From Anderseniella sp. (GTDB taxonomy: Bacteria; Pseudomonadota; Alphaproteobacteria; Rhizobiales; Aestuariivirgaceae): a stretch of 58,004 nt of DNA. This document shows, one piece after another, positions 7,282 to 31,494 of the stretch (position 1 is the first letter of the stretch; each line of letters begins with the position of its first letter). Where the stretch lies: assembly GCA_028289645.1 (NCBI GenBank), contig JANQOK010000010.1:1-58004 (forward strand), read 5' to 3'. The notes below the pieces were generated by a model that did not search any database, had not been told where the DNA came from, and saw nothing but the letters and a program-made list of their open reading frames with translations. Made by a program: the position numbers and the translations under genes.

Positions 7282-7961
7282 GGTTACTGCTTATCGAGGA
7301 TGATGTCCGGATCGTGGAGTTTCTCGGTCGGGGACTGAAGGCTGAGGGCCATACAGTTGATATACAGACCGACGGCAAGTCCGGTTTCGACGCGGCCAGC
7401 AACGGGAGTTGGGATGCGATCATCCTGGACGTCATGCTGCCGGCGCTTGACGGGCGCGAGGTGTGCAGGTCGCTGCGCCTGGACAACAACCGCACTCCCA
7501 TCCTGATGCTCACCGCGCTGGACAGTACCGATGATGTCGTCCGTGGCCTGAGGCTAGGTGCTGACGATTACATGACCAAGCCGTTCGCCTTCGATGAACT
7601 GCTGGCCAGGCTGGAAAGCCTCGACCGCCGCGCCGAAGCTGGCGAACTGAAGCAGGCAAAGGGTGTCATGCAGGCCGACGATCTGACATTTGATCGTGAT
7701 GCACTCATCGTCAAGCGGGCCGGCAAGACTATCGAACTGACATCCCTGGAGTATGCCTTGCTGGAGTTCATGATGGTGGAGACCGGCAAGGTCCTGAGCC
7801 GTGCCAGGATATTGCAGAACGTATGGGGCGTGTCGCAGGACCCGCTTACCAATGTCGTTGACGTCTATATCAGACGGCTGCGCGCCAAGATCGACGATGG
7901 CGCCGAGACCAGGCTGATCAACACGGTCCGCGGCCGCGGCTACCGGTTTGGTGCGGTCTAG
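7278..7961 (+). CDS. OmpR/PhoB-family response regulator
   Basis: A 227-aa regulator. The receiver domain (1 to about 118) has acidic pocket D8/D9, phospho-acceptor D51 (ILDVMLP) and K101 (TKPF). The C-terminal winged-helix DNA-binding domain contains the SLEYALLEFMM and NVVDVYIRRLRAKID segments. The TTG start lies within a TTGA overlap with the kinase stop, so the pair is translationally coupled. It is phosphorylated by the kinase immediately upstream. The next operon (8216-12591) begins 254 nt downstream in the same direction and is a possible target. Confidence 0.93.
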   Translation: MRLLLIEDDVRIVEFLGRGLKAEGHTVDIQTDGKSGFDAASNGSWDAIILDVMLPALDGREVCRSLRLDNNRTPILMLTALDSTDDVVRGLRLGADDYMTKPFAFDELLARLESLDRRAEAGELKQAKGVMQADDLTFDRDALIVKRAGKTIELTSLEYALLEFMMVETGKVLSRARILQNVWGVSQDPLTNVVDVYIRRLRAKIDDGAETRLINTVRGRGYRFGAV

Positions 7962-8215
7962 AGCAGGAAATTCTGTCTCGCCTTCGAAATTGCGGCAACA
8001 TTCGTGCTTTGCCATGAACGCGAAATGAACCGGTTGTGAAGCCTGCATAAATGTGAGTTGAACTGCTTGTTAAGCGATAAATAACAACGTGTTAAGCAGA
8101 TTGCGCGGTGAAATTCCGGCATGCATCCTCTGCTCGTGACGGCATCGAAACACGCGTTGTGAGGCCTGCGCAGGCAGCCTCGAACAGCGGCTAACACGAA
8201 AGCAGAGGAACCGAC

Positions 8216-21937: not shown

Positions 21938-22681
21938 TCACAGGTTTATCTCGCCGCTGAAGATCGCCCGGGCAATTGCCTGCTCACGGGTGTTGGCACC
22001 GAGTTTGCGCCGTGCGTTGGTGATGTAGAGGCGGACCGCAGATTCACTGAGCGACAGCCGGTCCGCGATCATCGAAACTCTCAAGCCCGCGCAAAGCCAT
22101 ATCAGGCATTCGCGTTCACGCTCGCTGAGCAACTGTTCCGCACCCATGCTGCCGAGCCCGAGTGCCACCATTCGCTCATAGGCCAGTACGCCCGCCAGGT
22201 GCATTGTGGTGGCATGATCTTCATGCAGTTTCTCAAACTGCTGTTCCGCCTCACTGTTTGAAAAGATCCAGCCGCCGAACAGTGTGTTGCTGTTTCCCGA
22301 CATCCGGACCGGGACGCCCAGATTATGGACCGCGCCGTTTTCAGCTGCATGTTCCAGAAACGTCGCGTGTTGAGAGGTTGCGTCCGGAAAGCTCGACAGG
22401 TCCTTGGTGACGATTTTCTTGGCAGTCAGCGTATTGCAGCTGAACAACAGAAACGGATCGATCTGCCCAAGGCCTTCCCTGGCATAGGCATGCTGGAACT
22501 CTGCGCTGAAATTGGAGCTGATGCGGGGACGTTCAATTTGCCCGTCGGTGCTCTTTCCGAGCACAAGAGAGCAGCCAGCATAACCGGTATCAGCGGCAAA
22601 GTCAGCCGTGCGCCGCCAGACGGCTGCTGAGTCCGGCAGTATGGTCAGGTCGTCGACAAACTCCGCAAAGCGTGAATCCAT
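21938..22681 (-). CDS. LuxR-family regulator with autoinducer-binding-like domain
   Basis: A 247-aa regulator. The N-terminal part (about 1-165) is like an autoinducer-binding domain, with Asp and Pro in the QIDPFLL motif and a downstream NLGVPVRMSG. The C-terminal LuxR HTH is LLSERERECLIWLCAGLRVSMIADRLSLSESAVRLYI. Two positions usually Trp in AHL receptors appear as Phe (before AYAREG) and Ile (KKIVTKDL). No luxI-like gene is visible, so it is a LuxR solo that may sense a different signal. The divergent gene is the Cys-rich secreted protein at 22847. An imperfect IR, TGGGATGT..ACACCCA, lies near 22711-22727. Confidence 0.88.
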   Translation of the reverse strand: MDSRFAEFVDDLTILPDSAAVWRRTADFAADTGYAGCSLVLGKSTDGQIERPRISSNFSAEFQHAYAREGLGQIDPFLLFSCNTLTAKKIVTKDLSSFPDATSQHATFLEHAAENGAVHNLGVPVRMSGNSNTLFGGWIFSNSEAEQQFEKLHEDHATTMHLAGVLAYERMVALGLGSMGAEQLLSERERECLIWLCAGLRVSMIADRLSLSESAVRLYITNARRKLGANTREQAIARAIFSGEINL

Positions 22682-22846
22682 ATGGGCACTCCCGCAGAAA
22701 GTTTACGTAGTGGGATGTTCACACCCATGGATTGCAAAAACAATATATCGATTCTGCCATATTGCGGCATGAGTGGGGTTTTCGTCTGTTTGATGTGTGA
22801 GAGGTGCTGCGATTTCTCAAGAATCGGCGTCCAGGGGATCGAACTG

Positions 22847-23560
22847 ATGAATATGTTCAGGATCGCGACCGGTGCAGTGTCCATGATGGCGGCCTGTCTG
22901 GTTTTAGTTGCCGCCCAGCCGCCGCTTCATGCGGCCTCGCAAGAGTATTGCAAGAAGTACGTCAAGCAGGCGCTCGAACAGCAAAGGCGCAATATCGGCA
23001 ACCAGTGCGGTCTGACCGGCAGCTTGTGGAGCGACAATTTTTTCGTGCATGCCTACTACTGCACCGGCGCCAGTGAGGCTGCCGCCGCCAACAACCGGAT
23101 ATCGCGTGAAAACGCGCTGAAAGCCTGCAAACCCCACAGCGGCGCTCGGGAGGACTGCATCCGCATGGCGAGGTACGGGCTTTACCGGCTCAAGGAAAAC
23201 CGCGACATGAAGTGCGGTTACAAGGGCCCGCTCGCCAACATCAGGACGCTCAAGGATTTCGTCAACCGCTGTGTGGAGGCCGGTGCCTTGTTCGGCCGGT
23301 TGTATAGACAAGTTGGCGCCACCGATGATTGTGCGGAAAGCAACCCGAGGGGAAACTCCGAGTTTTGCAGGTGGTATGGCCGCACCAGGGTGGACCTGGA
23401 GCTGAGGATCAAGTTCAGGGCTTGTGGCGGCCGGCCCAATGTAAACACTTCGGCCGCAGTCACCCAGGCCCAGTATCGCGACTGTCCGACCCGCTGGCGC
23501 GAAATCTCATTCGAACGTATCGAGCAGTTGCGGCGCAAGCTGAAGAAGATCTGTGGCTAG
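22847..23560 (+). CDS. Secreted Cys-rich protein of unknown function
   Basis: A 237-aa protein with a signal peptide of about 29 residues (MNMFRIATGAVSMMAACLVL...PLHAAS). The mature part is rich in cysteine (about a dozen) and basic residues, with repeated patterns such as YCKKYVKQALEQQ, CGLTGSLWSDNFFVHAYYC and FCRWYGRTRVDLELRIKFRAC, which suggest a disulfide-bonded helical protein. ATG 22847 is chosen for the signal peptide. It is 39 nt upstream of the hemopexin fusion gene, so the two are probably co-transcribed and may be exported together. Confidence 0.7.
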   Translation: MNMFRIATGAVSMMAACLVLVAAQPPLHAASQEYCKKYVKQALEQQRRNIGNQCGLTGSLWSDNFFVHAYYCTGASEAAAANNRISRENALKACKPHSGAREDCIRMARYGLYRLKENRDMKCGYKGPLANIRTLKDFVNRCVEAGALFGRLYRQVGATDDCAESNPRGNSEFCRWYGRTRVDLELRIKFRACGGRPNVNTSAAVTQAQYRDCPTRWREISFERIEQLRRKLKKICG

Positions 23561-23599
23561 CAGGAATCTCCGGCGAGACGGCGATCAAGGGAGGATAGC

Positions 23600-25771
23600 A
23601 TGTATATCGGTATATCTGATGCAGCGCATCGAAAGACTTACGCGCCGGGGGCGCTGGCAGCGGGAACTGTGTTCGGCCTGGTTGCCCTTGCCGCAGTCGG
23701 TACTGCCGCTAATGCCGAGTCATCCATCGATGCGGCGATGTTTGCCAATGGCAAGACCTATTTCTTCAAGGACATCGGCTATTACCGGCTGAACGGCAGC
23801 AGGGTAGAGCCTGGCTATCCCAAGCTGATGCGGCAGTGGAAAGGCCTGCCGCGCAAGTTTCAAAGCGGGCTGGACGCGGCACTGTACTTTCCCGAACGCA
23901 AGAAGATCTATTTCTTCAAGGGCAACCAGTACGTCCGCATCACCGGCAGCAAGATGGACAAGGGTTATCCCAACCTCATCTCAAGGGCCTGGCAGGGCAT
24001 GCCGGCGCGGTTTCACTCTAACCTGGATGCCGCCGTCTACAGGAAAGGCCATACCTACTTTTTCAAGGGCGGCGAATATGTCCGGTTCACCGGAACCCGC
24101 ATGGACAAGGGCTATCCCAGGAAGTTACCGGGCGGATGGGGGTTCCCCGGCGGCTTTCGCAACAACCTGGATGCAGCCTTCCAATCCGGCAAGAACAAAC
24201 GCTACTATGTGTTCAAGGGCAATCGCTACATCCGCCTGACCGACATCAAGCTCGACAAGGGCTACCCGCGCGCCTTAAGTGTGTGGAAAGGCCTGAGCGG
24301 CAATTTCGCCAACAACAAGCCCAAACCGAAGGACGGCGGCAGTGGAAAGGCCGGCGGTGCCGACAGCCCATATGATCTCAGCAAGGGCATTCTGCCGGCC
24401 CAGATGTCCTGGCTGCCGCAGGTCTGTCCCAACCTGGATTTCTGCTCCAAGCTGGTGAGCCGCGCCTACGATGTCCAGTTGCGCAGCTACGTGCCGCCGA
24501 GGTTCGTGGCTATGGGCGGATACGCCGACCTGGTCGCAACCCGCGATGTGCCCAAGTACGGTGTCCGGGCCGGCTGCCGTTTCGACAGTCAGGAATACAA
24601 GAATCGTATCCGTGACGACCAGACCCTGTGGGAAGAAGGTCTTGAGCTTGGCCAGGCCATCCTTGCCCAGTGGGGCGGAGCACTGAAGGCTGCCAAGTCC
24701 GCCGTGGCCTCTTCTGTGGCCGGCGAGATCTGCACCATTGTCGATGACAGCAATTCTTGCCGCAGCACGTTGAAGACGGCCATCACTGCCGGACTGAACG
24801 CCGGCATGGTCGCGCTTGGGCTGCCGCCGGAGATTCCCGATTTGCGGATGTTGCGCGAGCAGGGCATCAACTACCTGGCGTCCGAAGCGGTTTCCATCGC
24901 ACTGAGCAATGCCGACAAGATTGCCGGCGAAGCCGTACCTGGCCTGATCAGGGAACAGGTTTACGAGCGTGCGTTCGATGCGGCCAAGAAAGCCCTGACC
25001 AAGGAGTTGAATACACTGGTGCCGTCCGCCAACTATGATCCGGAAAAGCCTGAATCCTGGGGCTACATGGTCAGGGCCTATTCACCGCGTCCGGCACAGG
25101 CCTATGTCACCATCAAGCGGCGCGAGGGCATTGATCCGGTGATCTATGGTCTGATGGCGCAACTCAACATGCGCAACCGGCCGCAGCTGGCACTGATCGA
25201 CCGCAACAAGGTCTGGGGTCTGACCCTGGTACCATTCCCGGAATATGTGCCGGCCGAAGGCCTGATCCTGCCGATTGTGCTGAAGCCGTCCTATGGCCCG
25301 AAAAACGCTGCTGACCGGGTGCCCGACACCAAGATTCCCGGCCAGCCGATTTCAGATCACTGGCTCAACAACAAGTTCGGCATGAGCGCCTACCATATGC
25401 GCGCCCACCAAACCAACCTCGATCACCACAAGTCCACCAGCGGCCAGCCAGGCTCGGACTGGGACCTGTTCTATTCGAAGGTGAGACTCAGGTATGATTT
25501 TCAGCTTGCCGCCACCTGGTCGGCCTTCGGCCCGGCAAAGAAGGGGTATGAGCCGATTGTGTTCTCCGAACACTCGGAGAGAAACGGTATTGTCTGGGAT
25601 GCGGTCACCGGCCTCGGCATTCGCAAAACCAACCAGAAGTGCAGGACCAGCTGGTGGTATGCCGATCAGCTGAAAGACTATATGGGCCGCATTGACCCGC
25701 CGAAGCACTGCAATGGCCACCCAAACCTCGTAAACTACCTGGACAAGGAAATCAGGAAGCGATGTTACTGA
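23600..25771 (+). CDS. Secreted four-repeat hemopexin-propeller fusion protein
   Basis: A 723-aa protein. A signal peptide is at about 1-39 (ending TAANA). Four hemopexin-like repeats are at about 42-88, 89-140, 141-188 and 189-236, each with an (S/N)xLDAA/xIDAA strand, a YFFKG or YVFKG segment and the (M/L)DKGYPR turn. A Gly/Pro/Lys linker (about 237-257) leads to a 465-aa C-terminal region of unknown fold with eight cysteines. It contains an all-helical stretch (about 325-455) and YHMRAHQTNLDHHKS. Four repeats can close a full propeller. Hemopexin repeats are known in animals and rarely in bacteria (e.g. photopexins). The ligand is unknown; heme is only a guess. It overlaps the convergent LysR gene by 7 nt. 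Confidence 0.8.
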   Translation: MYIGISDAAHRKTYAPGALAAGTVFGLVALAAVGTAANAESSIDAAMFANGKTYFFKDIGYYRLNGSRVEPGYPKLMRQWKGLPRKFQSGLDAALYFPERKKIYFFKGNQYVRITGSKMDKGYPNLISRAWQGMPARFHSNLDAAVYRKGHTYFFKGGEYVRFTGTRMDKGYPRKLPGGWGFPGGFRNNLDAAFQSGKNKRYYVFKGNRYIRLTDIKLDKGYPRALSVWKGLSGNFANNKPKPKDGGSGKAGGADSPYDLSKGILPAQMSWLPQVCPNLDFCSKLVSRAYDVQLRSYVPPRFVAMGGYADLVATRDVPKYGVRAGCRFDSQEYKNRIRDDQTLWEEGLELGQAILAQWGGALKAAKSAVASSVAGEICTIVDDSNSCRSTLKTAITAGLNAGMVALGLPPEIPDLRMLREQGINYLASEAVSIALSNADKIAGEAVPGLIREQVYERAFDAAKKALTKELNTLVPSANYDPEKPESWGYMVRAYSPRPAQAYVTIKRREGIDPVIYGLMAQLNMRNRPQLALIDRNKVWGLTLVPFPEYVPAEGLILPIVLKPSYGPKNAADRVPDTKIPGQPISDHWLNNKFGMSAYHMRAHQTNLDHHKSTSGQPGSDWDLFYSKVRLRYDFQLAATWSAFGPAKKGYEPIVFSEHSERNGIVWDAVTGLGIRKTNQKCRTSWWYADQLKDYMGRIDPPKHCNGHPNLVNYLDKEIRKRCY

Positions 25772-27541: not shown

Positions 27542-27669
27542 CGGGATGTGTGTCTTTTGGGCAACACATTCCAAAAAAGTATTTCCTTGCGGCAGAATCC
27601 TCTGGAAACTGATCGGTGCACGTTTCATGCTGATCGATGGAGCGAGTTGCAGGGTCAGGGGAATTCACC

Positions 27670-30600
27670 ATGCGTCGGTGGTTGACTGCAATTTTGGCAG
27701 TGTGTGCGTGCCTGATGGTCGCGTCGGTCTCTGCCTATGCGCAGGATTCCGGCGTTTCCGGCACCAGGGGTGCACTGTTTGAGCCCTGGGGCAGGTTCGG
27801 AGCCAGCCTCGGAAACAAGCGCTCGGAGTCCGAACTCACCATTTTCACACCGCTGCAGCAGGATCACACGACACTGTTGTTCGGGCAACTGGATGCCCGG
27901 CTTGGCAGCAATGACCTGTCCGACCTGACCGATGAAGATTTTCAGGAACTCGGTCTGGCGTTGGCTTTCCGCATGATGGATGTCGACGGCGTCAATTATG
28001 GAGGCTTCATCGCCTATGACTATCAGCACACCAGGTTCGACAACGATTTCCACCACATTGTACTAGGCGGCGAGGCGCTGTCGGAAGACTATGAGGTCCG
28101 CGTCAACCTGCATCTGCCGCTGACCGAGCAGGGTGGCCGTGATGACGGCAATTTCATTATCGATGGCAACGCGATCCTGCTTGATGGTGCCGGTGAAGTG
28201 GGCATGTGGGGCATCGATGCAGAAGCGGGTCGGCGCTGGTACACCGGCGACACCAGTATCGGCCTGTGGGGCGGCGGTTATGTGTTTGATGACTGGTGGG
28301 GCACCGGGGCTGACACCATTGTCGGTGTCAGGGGCAGGGCGGAGTACGCCGCCTACAACGTGCTTGACATGGCAGGATCGAAGTTCTCGGTCGAAACATC
28401 GGTTCGCTGGGATGAGGAGCGCGGTGCCGATGCGCGTGGTGGTTTCCGGCTGCGCATCCCGTTCGGTGGCGTTGATGCCTCACCGCGCGACGGCACGCGC
28501 CAGGAAATCCTCATGGTCGAACCGTTGCGCCGTGAGGCACCTGTGCTGGGACGCTCGGGAACGGAGCAACTGGTGCCCGAAAACGGGACCGGCGCAACCA
28601 CCACCATCTTCTTTGCTGATGCGGCCGGCGGCGGCGCGGGCACACAGGACGACCCGACAACACTGGAAGACGCCATCAGCCAGGCCGGTGACAATGGCAT
28701 TGTCGTGGTCAGCGGCGATGCCGGCCAAGTCGGCGCGCCCGGTTCTGGCTTCCAGTTGGCAGAAGGCCAGTCCATCATCGGCGGCGGCCAGACCGCGCTG
28801 TTCTCCGGTGCCAGCAGCGGCGGCACCGGCAGCTTCACCGCGCCCGGCAGCAAGCCGGACATTGCCGGTACAAATGCCGCCAATCCGGTGTTCACGCTGG
28901 CCGACAACAACTATATCGGCGGCGTCGGCATCAGCGGTGCCTTCAGCGACGGCATCTTCGGCGATCAGATCAACCGCTGGCAGATTGTCGACAACATGAT
29001 CGTCGGCTATGCCGACCGCGGCATCGACATCACCACCCTCAACACCGTCAACGGCTCCGGCATCATCACCGGCAACCTGATTTCCGAAGGCGGCTCCCAG
29101 GCCGCCATTGCCGCGGTTGACCCGATCGCGGAACCGTTCACCGGCGATCCGAATGCACCCGAACCGCCCCTGCCGACACCGAACCTGGCAGCGGTTTCCG
29201 GCGATGACGACGATGACGACGACGATGATGACGACGACGATGACGATGACGATGACGACGACACGCTGCAGGCTGTCTCGGTCGTCAATGTCGTTGATGA
29301 TGGCGCGGCACATTCGCAGCAGCTGACCATCAGCGGCAACGAAATCTTCAACGTCACCAACGACGCGGTGTTCGTCGCAAACGATCTGACCGGCCCCGGC
29401 AGCAGTCTCGACCAGACGATCGTAGCCAACAACAACACCATCAACTCAGCCAGTGATGGCTTCTATGTGCGCAACCACGTGTTTGACCGGTCGACGCTGA
29501 CCCAGGACCTGACGTTTGACGGTGGGCTGTATGCCAACATCACCGACGACGCCATCGACATCGGCAACCTGGCCACCAGCGGCGGCACCATCGACCAGGG
29601 CAATACCATCCGGGTCATCAACGGCACGTTCAGGTCCGTCGCCTCGGCCGTAGACATTGAAAGCTTCGCCACCAGCCATGAGGCTTATGACCCTTCAGCC
29701 GTCGGTGTGGTGGGCAACACGCTGTTCGGGTCGACGATTATCCAGAACATCATCGTCACCGGCAACGACATCGGCAACGCCACCAGCGATGCCATCGACA
29801 TAGAAAATGACGTGCACACGGCGCTCAACGCGACACGATCCAGCCTGACGCAAACTATGAATCTGTCGAACAATACCATCGTTGGGTCGACCAGCGGCGT
29901 AATCGAGGTTGCCACTTTCACCAGCGGCAGTCCGCCCGGAGACGATGCACCGGCTTCGAACAAGAGCGGCGATGTCGACTTGACAGTTAACATACTGAAC
30001 AATGTGATCGACGGCGCAGACAGCGATGCTATTGACTACGAAGTCAACATGGATGGCAACCAGCGCGCCAATGCCGAAAGCCATGTGGTGTTCACCGACA
30101 CGGTCAACATCATTGGCAACACCATAACCGATGCCGATTCCGATGCCATCGAAGTGCGCTATACGGTTCAGGAAGTGGATCCAGTTTTCGACACCACGCC
30201 GGATCAGTTCACATCGACTGTCAACATTTCCGGCAACACCCTGTTCGGTGGCTTCGTGTTTGATGGCGACAATGTCGACGGCACAAGCGGAGGTACCGCC
30301 ATCAATTTCGAGACACAGCTCGACCGGAACGGCAACGGCTCTACACCTGCCGACGTTCACGATCCCGACCTCGTGGCGGACCGACAAGTGACCGTCACCC
30401 AGCAGTTCACGATTTCCGATAACACCATCCTCGGCGGATTCGGAGACGGCATATCTGTGGAACCGCACATCGACGGCGAAGCCGACAATGAGCTGACCGA
30501 GGCCCAAATCATTACCCAGACCGGCACGATCAGTGGCAACGTTATTCGCAATATCTCCGAAGAAGCCATCACCGTCGAGCAGTTGGTCTCGGACAATAAC

Positions 30601-31494
30601 GGCCTGGTCACCACGAACATCACCATTTCAGACAACACCATCGAGGCGGCCTTCCACGAACTGGTTCCGGCAGGTGGCGGCCCGATCTTCATTCCCTCCA
30701 GCGCACAAGGTATCCGGATAGAGAATTTGACTGGAGACGACGACGTAGGGACGACGGGCCAGTCCATCCAGAATATTGTCATCAGCGGCAATACATTGCG
30801 CAACATCTACAATGACGCGATTGGCATCGATAATGGCTCTGACATTGGCCTGGCCCGGCAGACCATTCTGATCGACAACAATTCGATCATCGCCACGCGC
30901 TGCGACGGACCAGGCGGCGTGTGTGATGTTGTGGGCGGTGACGATGGTGGTGAGGCCATCAACATCGACAACGAGTCACAAGGCGGCATAGCCACGCAAA
31001 CGGTCACCGTCCGCGATACGTTTGTGTCGAATTCCGGCGACAATGGCCTGTACGCCGAAAACCAGATGCGGGCGCTGAGTGTTTCCGGCAATGTGGAGCC
31101 GCCACCCGCCTTCCCGACCGCCACACAGACCATCAACATCGAGAACAGCACCTTCACGCTCAGTGTCGATGACGGTCTGCAGTTCCGCAACATCGTCGAA
31201 GGCGGCGCCCCGGCCGGGTCAACGGCGATACAGAATGTCAATGTCACCGGAACGACCGTCACCCAGAACGGCCAGGACGGCTTTGACTTCGACAATGAAG
31301 GCGCCGATGCCACCCAGACCGTCGATATCGGCGGTGGCAGTGTGATCACCGGCAATGTGAGCCAGGGCGTGGATGCCGACAACACGGACGGCACCCAGGT
31401 CATCGGGCTGTTCGGCTCGACGCTCAACACCAATGGCGGCGGCAATGTCGATGCCGACACGGTCGGCGGCACCCAGACGGTCAACGGACCATAG
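27670..31494 (+). CDS. Inverse-autotransporter-like barrel with beta-helix passenger
   Basis: A 1274-aa surface protein. A signal peptide is at about 1-24 (ending SAYAQ). Residues of about 32-290 resemble an inverse autotransporter (intimin/invasin) beta-domain, with FGASLGNKRSESELTIFTP, TLLFGQLDARL, GGFIAYDYQHTRFDNDFHHIVLGGEAL and a strand-rich end. Residues of about 320-1270 hold many degenerate right-handed beta-helix turns of the type ...I(S/T)GN.I......DAI.I.N.... Twenty consecutive Asp lie at residues 512-531. The ATG at 27670 has AGGGG upstream. It is an adhesin-like candidate; the ligand is unknown. Confidence 0.75.
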   Translation: MRRWLTAILAVCACLMVASVSAYAQDSGVSGTRGALFEPWGRFGASLGNKRSESELTIFTPLQQDHTTLLFGQLDARLGSNDLSDLTDEDFQELGLALAFRMMDVDGVNYGGFIAYDYQHTRFDNDFHHIVLGGEALSEDYEVRVNLHLPLTEQGGRDDGNFIIDGNAILLDGAGEVGMWGIDAEAGRRWYTGDTSIGLWGGGYVFDDWWGTGADTIVGVRGRAEYAAYNVLDMAGSKFSVETSVRWDEERGADARGGFRLRIPFGGVDASPRDGTRQEILMVEPLRREAPVLGRSGTEQLVPENGTGATTTIFFADAAGGGAGTQDDPTTLEDAISQAGDNGIVVVSGDAGQVGAPGSGFQLAEGQSIIGGGQTALFSGASSGGTGSFTAPGSKPDIAGTNAANPVFTLADNNYIGGVGISGAFSDGIFGDQINRWQIVDNMIVGYADRGIDITTLNTVNGSGIITGNLISEGGSQAAIAAVDPIAEPFTGDPNAPEPPLPTPNLAAVSGDDDDDDDDDDDDDDDDDDDDTLQAVSVVNVVDDGAAHSQQLTISGNEIFNVTNDAVFVANDLTGPGSSLDQTIVANNNTINSASDGFYVRNHVFDRSTLTQDLTFDGGLYANITDDAIDIGNLATSGGTIDQGNTIRVINGTFRSVASAVDIESFATSHEAYDPSAVGVVGNTLFGSTIIQNIIVTGNDIGNATSDAIDIENDVHTALNATRSSLTQTMNLSNNTIVGSTSGVIEVATFTSGSPPGDDAPASNKSGDVDLTVNILNNVIDGADSDAIDYEVNMDGNQRANAESHVVFTDTVNIIGNTITDADSDAIEVRYTVQEVDPVFDTTPDQFTSTVNISGNTLFGGFVFDGDNVDGTSGGTAINFETQLDRNGNGSTPADVHDPDLVADRQVTVTQQFTISDNTILGGFGDGISVEPHIDGEADNELTEAQIITQTGTISGNVIRNISEEAITVEQLVSDNNGLVTTNITISDNTIEAAFHELVPAGGGPIFIPSSAQGIRIENLTGDDDVGTTGQSIQNIVISGNTLRNIYNDAIGIDNGSDIGLARQTILIDNNSIIATRCDGPGGVCDVVGGDDGGEAINIDNESQGGIATQTVTVRDTFVSNSGDNGLYAENQMRALSVSGNVEPPPAFPTATQTINIENSTFTLSVDDGLQFRNIVEGGAPAGSTAIQNVNVTGTTVTQNGQDGFDFDNEGADATQTVDIGGGSVITGNVSQGVDADNTDGTQVIGLFGSTLNTNGGGNVDADTVGGTQTVNGP
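29203..29262 (+). repeat. Polyaspartate tract: 20 GAT/GAC codons
   Basis: The in-frame codons mix GAT and GAC with no uniform trinucleotide, so this is selected protein composition more than a simple microsatellite. It lies inside the beta-helix passenger and would form a very acidic, probably Ca2+-binding stretch. Confidence 0.85.

What the first reader, a model, noticed from the sequence alone, without database searches (positions are those of the whole stretch)
22847..25771. Two-gene secreted module: Cys-rich protein plus hemopexin-propeller fusion with a large unknown domain
The second protein has four hemopexin-like repeats, enough for a full four-bladed propeller, fused to a 465-aa region with eight cysteines that I cannot assign. 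Hemopexin repeats are rare in bacteria. A small Cys-rich secreted protein is 39 nt upstream and a divergent LuxR solo lies next to it. The arrangement suggests a host- or neighbour-directed secreted complex. The sequence shows the repeats directly; the complex and target are inference.
Basis: partly seen in the sequence, partly recalled or inferred. Interest (0 to 1): 0.78.

Follow-up and report, generated by a model that had tools for sequence, protein, structure and literature searches.

The report
LuxR-linked secreted hemopexin-propeller gene pair
A bacterium carries two neighbouring genes for exported proteins, one with an animal-like four-bladed hemopexin propeller, and a DNA switch shared with related genes suggests that they belong to a small set of secreted proteins run by a signal-sensing regulator.

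Summary
P0002 (22847-23560) is a signal-peptide protein of helical Cys-repeats; P0001 (23600-25771) has four PF00045 blades followed by about 450 residues with no Pfam, NCBIfam or PDB match. Both are under purifying selection (dN/dS about 0.1). The genes are adjacent in 3 of 6 genus genomes searched (in one the hemopexin gene stops in the third blade); a hemopexin paralogue stands alone. The C-terminal region is not an orphan: a core of 100-150 residues is distantly shared (E about 1e-11) with four secreted proteins of the same order, three of them with a different Cys domain in front. The main new result is a 24-bp dyad between the divergent LuxR-family gene and P0002. It recurs ahead of the orthologous and G004 pairs, the hemopexin paralogue and some other Cys-repeat genes, and a 53%-identical LuxR paralogue sits beside a second site. 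A small LuxR-linked regulon of exported proteins is likely; 5 of 12 fetched Cys-repeat loci of the genus lack the site. Ligand, target and C-terminal function are inferred. Heme scavenging is disfavoured. The C-terminal model failed (pLDDT 39); the Cys-repeat model is good (pLDDT 80) and matches no known fold.

The parts
21938..22681 (-). LuxR-family regulator (autoinducer-binding domain plus GerE HTH), divergent from the pair
   Evidence: Pfam PF03472 E 1.5e-12 and PF00196 E 1.6e-14; orthologue in the same place in G001 (77-78%), paralogue (53%) divergent to another Cys-repeat gene
22738..22769 (.). 32-nt block identical in G001, within an aligned stretch of mean column identity 76% (gene ends included)
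22741..22764 (.). 24-bp dyad, proposed operator (CAATATATCGATTCTGCCATATTG)
   Evidence: recurs upstream of hemopexin and Cys-repeat genes in three species; leave-one-out score 28.8 against best 18.6 in 1,492,794 bases of the same genome
22847..23560 (+). P0002, secreted Cys-rich repeat protein, 237 aa, 13 Cys
22847..22933 (+). predicted signal peptide of P0002 (residues 1-29, LHA|AS)
   Evidence: read from the sequence; hydrophobic maximum at residues 6-24; a lipobox is possible in the G001 orthologue (by eye)
22943..23131 (+). Cys-repeat 1 of P0002 (residues 33-95)
23150..23341 (+). Cys-repeat 2 of P0002 (detected 102-146; end set by eye)
23363..23557 (+). divergent Cys-repeat 3 of P0002 (by eye: C174, C193-G, C213, C236)
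   Evidence: not detected by the repeat profile
23600..25771 (+). P0001, secreted hemopexin-propeller fusion protein, 723 aa
23600..23716 (+). predicted signal peptide of P0001 (residues 1-39, ANA|ES)
   Evidence: read from the sequence; hydrophobic maximum at residues 19-37
23726..23851 (+). hemopexin blade 1
   Evidence: E 1.1e-11
23870..24004 (+). hemopexin blade 2
   Evidence: E 4.5e-15
24023..24148 (+). hemopexin blade 3
   Evidence: E 1.2e-12
24167..24295 (+). hemopexin blade 4
   Evidence: E 1.3e-9
24416..25768 (+). C-terminal region (residues 273-723), all 8 Cys, no Pfam/NCBIfam/PDB match
24452..25177 (+). stretch covered by the five-row profile of the C-terminal family; the best-shared core is 24776-24967 (GLPPEIPDL..LREQGINYLA)

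Best explanation
The two genes are an operon of exported proteins in a small LuxR-linked regulon. Shown by computation: four hemopexin blades, Cys-repeats, recurrent adjacency, and a common 24-bp dyad in front of this pair and of related genes, with a LuxR-family gene beside two of the sites in each of two genomes (signal peptides are read by eye). Inferred: a LuxR-type dimer (the neighbour or its paralogue) binds the dyad when a signal is present and turns the genes on. Sec then exports both proteins. The propeller is the recognition module, binding a surface protein, glycan or polyanion. It replaces the small Cys domain that related proteins carry at the same end. The C-terminal helical-plus-beta domain is the working or anchoring part. 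The Cys-repeat protein is a disulfide-braced binding partner or a co-secreted companion. The most likely overall role is attachment to, or recognition of, another surface (host, particle or neighbour) under cell-signal control.
For: Four blades, all with the DAA motif, no Cys in the propeller. Pair adjacent and on one strand in G000, G001 and G004. dN/dS about 0.1. Dyad: the window 32-mer led to sites in L029, L039, L047, L048, L030 and L032. All 7 places scoring over 25 in 542,684 bases lie just upstream of Cys-repeat or hemopexin genes. In leave-one-out each of 5 sites ranks first in its own locus and above the best of 1,492,794 background bases of G000; 10 Mb of Markov sequence gives none over 20. 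A LuxR paralogue (53 and 52%) is divergent to a second Cys-repeat gene with the dyad between them, in G000 and in G001. The C-terminal core recurs with other N-terminal modules.
Against: No binding, expression or export was measured. LuxR binding to the dyad rests on adjacency in two paralogous loci, whose copies in G000 and G001 are orthologous and so not independent. The L030 and L032 sites match the window 32-mer at only 20 of 32, against 18-19 for the best in loci without a site, and L030 is weak in leave-one-out (20.6 against 19.0); one block shuffle reached 22.8. Of 12 fetched Cys-repeat loci in G000, G001 and G004, 6 have a site over 25, one a weak site (L036, 23.1) and 5 none (L037, L038, L040, L041, L042). 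The hemopexin paralogue has no Cys-repeat neighbour (L030). The C-terminal model failed (pLDDT 39.3), and its relatives share only 100-150 residues.
Confidence: 0.5

Rival explanations
1. Heme or iron scavenging: the propeller captures heme or iron-bearing compounds for uptake, as proposed for the photopexins.
For: Hemopexin blades; iron scavenging is the suggestion in print for photopexins (passages of PMC2266911; PMC2422844), and heme carriage for hemopexin repeat proteins of a ciliate (passages of PMC4614350).
Against: One propeller, not two, and only His139 and His151 within it; heme-binding hemopexin uses two propellers (recalled). The neighbouring ORFs read as LuxR-, LysR- and HxlR-type regulators, a dehydrogenase and an acetyltransferase (the last two by eye; Pfam for the three regulators), with no receptor or heme enzyme recognised among them. 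The dyad is tied to LuxR genes, not to a known iron regulator; no Fur-box search was run.
Confidence: 0.12
2. A secreted cell-damaging effector: the propeller targets a cell and the helical C-terminal part acts on its membrane.
For: Hydrophobic helices in the core (19-residue maxima 1.17 in P0001, 1.31 and 1.67 in the two G001 copies); targeting module plus conserved C-terminal domain; a Photorhabdus hemopexin gene was listed among putative toxins and its promoter was induced about tenfold by insect homogenate (passages of PMC2422844).
Against: The hydrophobicity is below a typical membrane helix except in one copy (threshold recalled); no match to a toxin family; no immunity-like gene recognised next to it by eye.
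Confidence: 0.15
3. An envelope or matrix structural protein of the bacterium itself, with propeller and Cys-repeats holding its own surface layer or biofilm together.
For: Cys-repeat proteins are multi-copy and some are fused to PAN domains (3 of 7 proteins scanned); LuxR-family control suits group behaviour (general knowledge).
Against: The full fusion gene was found in only two of the six genus genomes searched, which is unusual for a core envelope part; three of the other four are 78-86% complete, so some absences may be gaps.
Confidence: 0.2

Closest known systems
Photopexins PpxA/PpxB and Plu1645 of Photorhabdus (passages of PMC2266911 and PMC2422844; the original structure paper was not seen)
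   Same: bacterial hemopexin-repeat proteins fused to another domain, believed to serve in an animal host
   Different: photopexins are described as two HX domains, and Plu1645 as one, joined to a PA-IIL domain; here one propeller precedes an unrelated C-terminal domain, in what I infer to be another class of bacteria, beside a LuxR gene and a Cys-repeat gene
Vitronectin and MMP hemopexin domains (PDB 6o5e, 1gen, 1fbl)
   Same: hemopexin repeats, phmmer E 1.3e-22, 6.5e-19 and 3.1e-16
   Different: no Cys in the bacterial propeller, and no metallopeptidase domain in P0001
LuxR solos (review PMC10134790, passages)
   Same: autoinducer-binding plus GerE regulator, divergent to its putative target
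   Different: two paralogues share one dyad that lies ahead of exported proteins; absence of a LuxI is not proven
Undescribed secreted proteins with the same C-terminal core: G909 (L088 6162-8390), G986 (L089 6707-8902), G840 (L066 997-3042), G989 (L076 5344-8148)
   Same: core motif G[LI]PP.[IL]P, hydrophobic N-terminus
   Different: G909, G986 and G840 have a 'D.C..CG.PAA..FC' domain at the N-terminus instead of hemopexin; G989 has another N-terminus; identity only 17-26%

Membership tests
Hemopexin repeat protein (PF00045) | blades over the Pfam cut-off | tested here: met
   4 stretches, E 1.1e-49; all four places over the cut-off
Hemopexin repeat protein (PF00045) | four blades closing into a propeller | not tested
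   sequence shows four blades with DAA in each; the two structure jobs went to the C-terminal region and to P0002, so the propeller was not modelled
Heme-binding hemopexin | two propellers with heme-ligating His between them (recalled) | tested here: not met
   single propeller, His only at 139 and 151
Photopexin | HX domains joined to a PA-IIL domain (passage of PMC2422844) | tested here: not met
   no Pfam match in the C-terminal region
Matrix metalloproteinase | zinc peptidase domain with HExxH | tested here: not met
   motif absent, no peptidase Pfam
LuxR-family AHL-type regulator | autoinducer-binding and GerE domains | tested here: met
   PF03472 and PF00196 over cut-off; closest PDB chain LasR
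LuxR solo | no cognate luxI in the genome | tested here: inconclusive
   PF00765 0 of 1 in G000, but none of the 14 control genomes rang either
LuxR solo | dimer binds the neighbouring dyad | not testable with these tools
   co-location only
C-terminal 'GLPP' core family defined here | detected by a profile built without the window genus | tested here: met
   E 3.3e-11, 41.4 bits; best of 5000 shuffles 5.5 bits, best unrelated ORF 15.5 bits (L090) in the same database
Cys-repeat family defined here | C..Y......Q...N...CG..G..W....H..C......C repeats | tested here: met
   repeats 1 and 2 of P0002 found by an iterated profile seeded with repeat 1; repeat 3 only by eye

The most novel reading that the evidence does not exclude
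A dedicated LuxR-type regulon in this genus deploys a modular kit of exported recognition proteins: a conserved C-terminal domain is fitted with exchangeable front ends (an animal-like hemopexin propeller here, an undescribed Cys domain in other genera), alongside disulfide-braced Cys-repeat proteins, through one 24-bp operator.
Probability: 0.4. Interest if true: 0.68.

Novelty: new variant of a known kind. Interest (0 to 1): 0.52.

Why it matters
Bacterial hemopexin propellers have been guessed to scavenge heme or iron. This one comes with a candidate regulator, a candidate operator and candidate co-regulated genes, so expression, partner and ligand can be tested in a defined system. Two protein families involved (the Cys-repeat and the GLPP-core domain) had no Pfam match over cut-off in the members scanned, and the Cys-repeat model matches no solved fold.

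Tried and rejected
C-terminal structure: the model from 3 sequences had pLDDT 39.3, so nothing was read from it and it was not fold-searched. Fold searches with the P0002 model gave no match at E <= 0.001 in PDB (best 1.8) or BFVD (best 0.43).

Scans of genome contigs and viral contigs with the C-terminal region confirmed no relative. Matches in other genomes that I did not accept: G763 (reads as an ABC transporter ATPase), G500 (reads as an HDOD-type protein, name recalled) and G797 (E 0.009, its own frame not examined); G907 (E 0.009, two stops in the frame); G485, G659, G652, G649 (E 0.005-0.009; judged by score); G968 and G080 (E 0.004 and 0.007; G080 reads as a transporter permease). G968's frame again scored 15.5 bits, E 0.0024, the best of the unrelated-looking ORFs, so I count it as unproven rather than excluded. 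Plasmid hits H10-H18 (E 2 to 9) were not accepted. I fetched H11, H12, H16 and H17; the ORFs printed over them looked unrelated, but some lie on the other strand from the match. H10, H13-H15 and H18 were judged from the listing.

The heme-scavenger reading was demoted (one propeller, no iron genes recognised by eye). The ORF start at 22682 was rejected: it would cover the conserved intergenic block, while 22847 has an SD-like sequence (by eye) and agrees with the G001 gene. A PADLOC hit (E 0.0047, a helical stretch) and weak Pfam hits of single Cys-repeat members (best E 0.0059) were ignored. Rfam gave only two tRNAs.
Full report
OBSERVATION. P0002 (22847-23560, 237 aa, 13 Cys) and P0001 (23600-25771, 723 aa) are read as described, 39 nt apart. 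Pfam gives P0001 four hemopexin stretches, E 1.1e-49, and nothing else; P0002 and residues 258-723 have no family above cut-off. NCBIfam and PHROGs add nothing convincing, and the C-terminal profile finds no PDB chain at E 10. The closest PDB chain to P0001 is vitronectin (E 1.3e-22), then MMP hemopexin domains, then plant hemopexin-fold proteins. Each blade keeps the DAA motif (44, 92, 143, 191); residues 1-260 have no Cys. Each protein starts with a Sec-type signal, read by eye. dN/dS against the G001 orthologues is 0.099 (P0001), 0.088 (P0002) and 0.137 (LuxR), dS about 1: real, constrained genes.

HOW RARE. PF00045 rings in 1 of 289 class genomes, the window's own. Among 100 relatives (own included) P0001 finds 5 genomes: G000, G001, G004, G015, G097. 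Among 69 family genomes (own included) the three-row profile finds 6: G000, G001, G003, G004, G015, and G840 (the last by its C-terminal part). Outside this group, 9 of 72,556 plasmid records match the propeller part. So the repeat is rare here but not unknown in bacteria; Photorhabdus photopexins are in print (passages of PMC2266911 and PMC2422844).

THE PAIR. The full fusion occurs in G000 and twice in G001: an 82% orthologue on C2 with an adjacent 86% P0002 orthologue, and a 58% paralogue on C3 with no Cys-repeat neighbour. G004 has a Cys-repeat gene next to a hemopexin gene that leaves the family in the third blade and lacks the C-terminal domain. So the genes are adjacent in 3 of the 6 genus genomes searched (G000-G005; G002, G003 and G005 are 85, 78 and 86% complete), and one of four hemopexin genes of this type stands alone.

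THE C-TERMINAL REGION. The first profile found no relative in 384 other class genomes, nor did the collection searches. The full-length profile then met G840 (1 of 69 family genomes; E 4.1e-5). A search with the G840 C-terminal part found G989 (8.5e-5) and, back again, the window protein itself (1.5e-4) among 219 order genomes. The five-row profile found G909 (1.3e-10) and G986 (2.1e-8) among 214 order genomes; among 214 genomes of the whole phylum it gave only four weak matches besides the own one (E 0.005-0.009). A profile realigned from the four outside proteins alone scores P0001 at 41.4 bits, E 3.3e-11; the best of 5000 shuffles of its C-terminal region reaches 5.5 bits, and the best unrelated-looking ORF 15.5 bits. 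The shared core is a helical stretch with G[LI]PP.[IL]P, and identity is 17-26%. G909, G986 and G840 begin with a Cys domain (D.C..CG.PAA..FC) that has no Pfam match; a like domain ends the Cys-repeat protein L044 (read by eye). The hemopexin propeller thus sits where relatives carry another module. The structure model of this region failed (pLDDT 39.3).

THE CYS-REPEAT PROTEIN. P0002-like repeats match in 31 of 100 genomes, own included. An iterated profile over the fetched loci found arrays of up to eight repeats; 64 stretches passed E 1e-8, a few of them the same repeat in overlapping loci. Some proteins join the repeats to PAN_4 domains (3 of 7 proteins scanned). The P0002 model from 30 sequences has pLDDT 80.1 and pTM 0.63: nine helices, about three per repeat. 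It matches no PDB or BFVD structure at E <= 0.001, and its profile matches no PDB chain. Disulfide pairing was not examined.

THE OPERATOR. Between the divergent LuxR gene (start 22681) and P0002 (start 22847), 22738-22769 is identical in G001, in an aligned stretch of mean column identity 76%. Scanning 15 sources with this 32-mer gave 32 of 32 in L029, 24 in L039 and L047 (Cys-repeat genes in G000 and G001), 21 in L048 (Cys-repeat gene in G004), and 20 in L030 (hemopexin paralogue) and L032 (the G004 pair); loci without a site reach 18-19, so the last two were accepted for their position, their match to the dyad and the later tests. The L048 form is a near-perfect dyad, CAATATGGC-N6-GCCATATTG. 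A matrix of five sites scores seven places over 25 in 542,684 bases, all just upstream of these genes. Leave-one-out: every site ranks first in its own locus and above the best of 1,492,794 background bases of G000 (window 28.8/18.6, L030 20.6/19.0, L032 24.1/19.0, L039 28.6/18.5, L048 32.5/17.8). Ten Mb of Markov sequence holds none over 20. One dinucleotide-block shuffle did reach 22.8, so single weak sites need care. In 1,609,802 scanned bases of G000 (34%) the sites over 20 are three: the window, L039, and a weaker one (23.1) in L036, ahead of another regulator with a LuxR-type HTH that is followed by a Cys-repeat gene. Of 12 fetched Cys-repeat loci in G000, G001 and G004, 6 have a site over 25, one has this weaker site, and 5 (L037, L038, L040, L041, L042) have none. 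The dyad thus marks part of the family, not all of it.

THE REGULATOR. The window LuxR has an autoinducer-binding and a GerE domain, with LasR the closest PDB chain. In L039 and L047 a paralogue (53 and 52% identical) again lies divergently to a Cys-repeat gene with the dyad between them. This repeated layout is the main argument that LuxR-type dimers bind the dyad. No LuxR homologue was found by blastp beside the sites in L030, L032 and L048, so control there would be in trans. By the LasR alignment the Tyr and Asp-Pro of the ligand site are kept, one Trp is Phe and another is not kept (residue roles recalled), so the ligand may not be a standard AHL. A luxI was not found, but the search was not controlled.

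INTERPRETATION. I read the finding as an exported recognition pair in a small LuxR-linked regulon. The regulatory part is the best supported. The function (attachment or recognition under cell-signal control) is inference from the propeller, the module exchange and the regulator. Iron scavenging is the published guess for other bacterial hemopexins, but this protein has one propeller and two His in it, and no iron genes were recognised nearby. A membrane-active effector is not excluded.

PRIOR WORK. The searches did not list a paper on a LuxR-linked hemopexin operon or on these two domain families; several lists were capped (20 of 420, 10 of 255, 10 of 218, 8 of 4,426), and the library lacks most subscription papers. 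Read in passages only: PMC2266911, PMC2422844, PMC4614350, PMC10134790; all other papers were seen in search listings.

Noticed in passing
window 27637-31494: A 1285-aa ORF, apparently exported, with repeated 'GNTI'-like strands as in a beta-helix and a run of about 20 Asp, lies downstream; not analysed.
   Followed up: no
L034 6300-7788 (G015): Hemopexin blades without an evident signal are followed in the same open frame by HETGHIFGAPDEYG, an HExxH peptidase-like stretch, an MMP-like pairing in reverse order; the contig ends there.
   Followed up: partly
L033 7989-8699, L031 about 7421-8032, L065 1117-1809: A different, leaderless hemopexin protein of about 235 aa in G004, G001 and G003; in L033 and L031 it lies between a molybdopterin-oxidoreductase-like gene and an ArsR-like gene (names by eye).
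   Followed up: no
L037, L041, L042, L043, L045: Secreted proteins joining Cys-repeats to an N-terminal PAN-like domain (PAN_4 confirmed by Pfam in L037, L043, L045; the other two by eye).
   Followed up: partly
L088 6162-8390, L089 6707-8902, L066 997-3042, L044 6960-7502: An undescribed Cys domain 'D.C..CG.PAA..FC...G...I.C' shared by GLPP-core proteins and a Cys-repeat protein; a plasmid of Legionella adelaidensis also matches it (listing only).
   Followed up: partly
L036 5019-6243: A weaker dyad (23.1) lies ahead of a 375-aa regulator with a LuxR-type HTH, followed by a Cys-repeat gene: possibly a further branch of the regulon.
   Followed up: partly
L032 7734-8291 (G004): The hemopexin gene next to a Cys-repeat gene leaves the family in the third blade and lacks the C-terminal domain; it may be decayed or a short version. 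Left as read.
   Followed up: no
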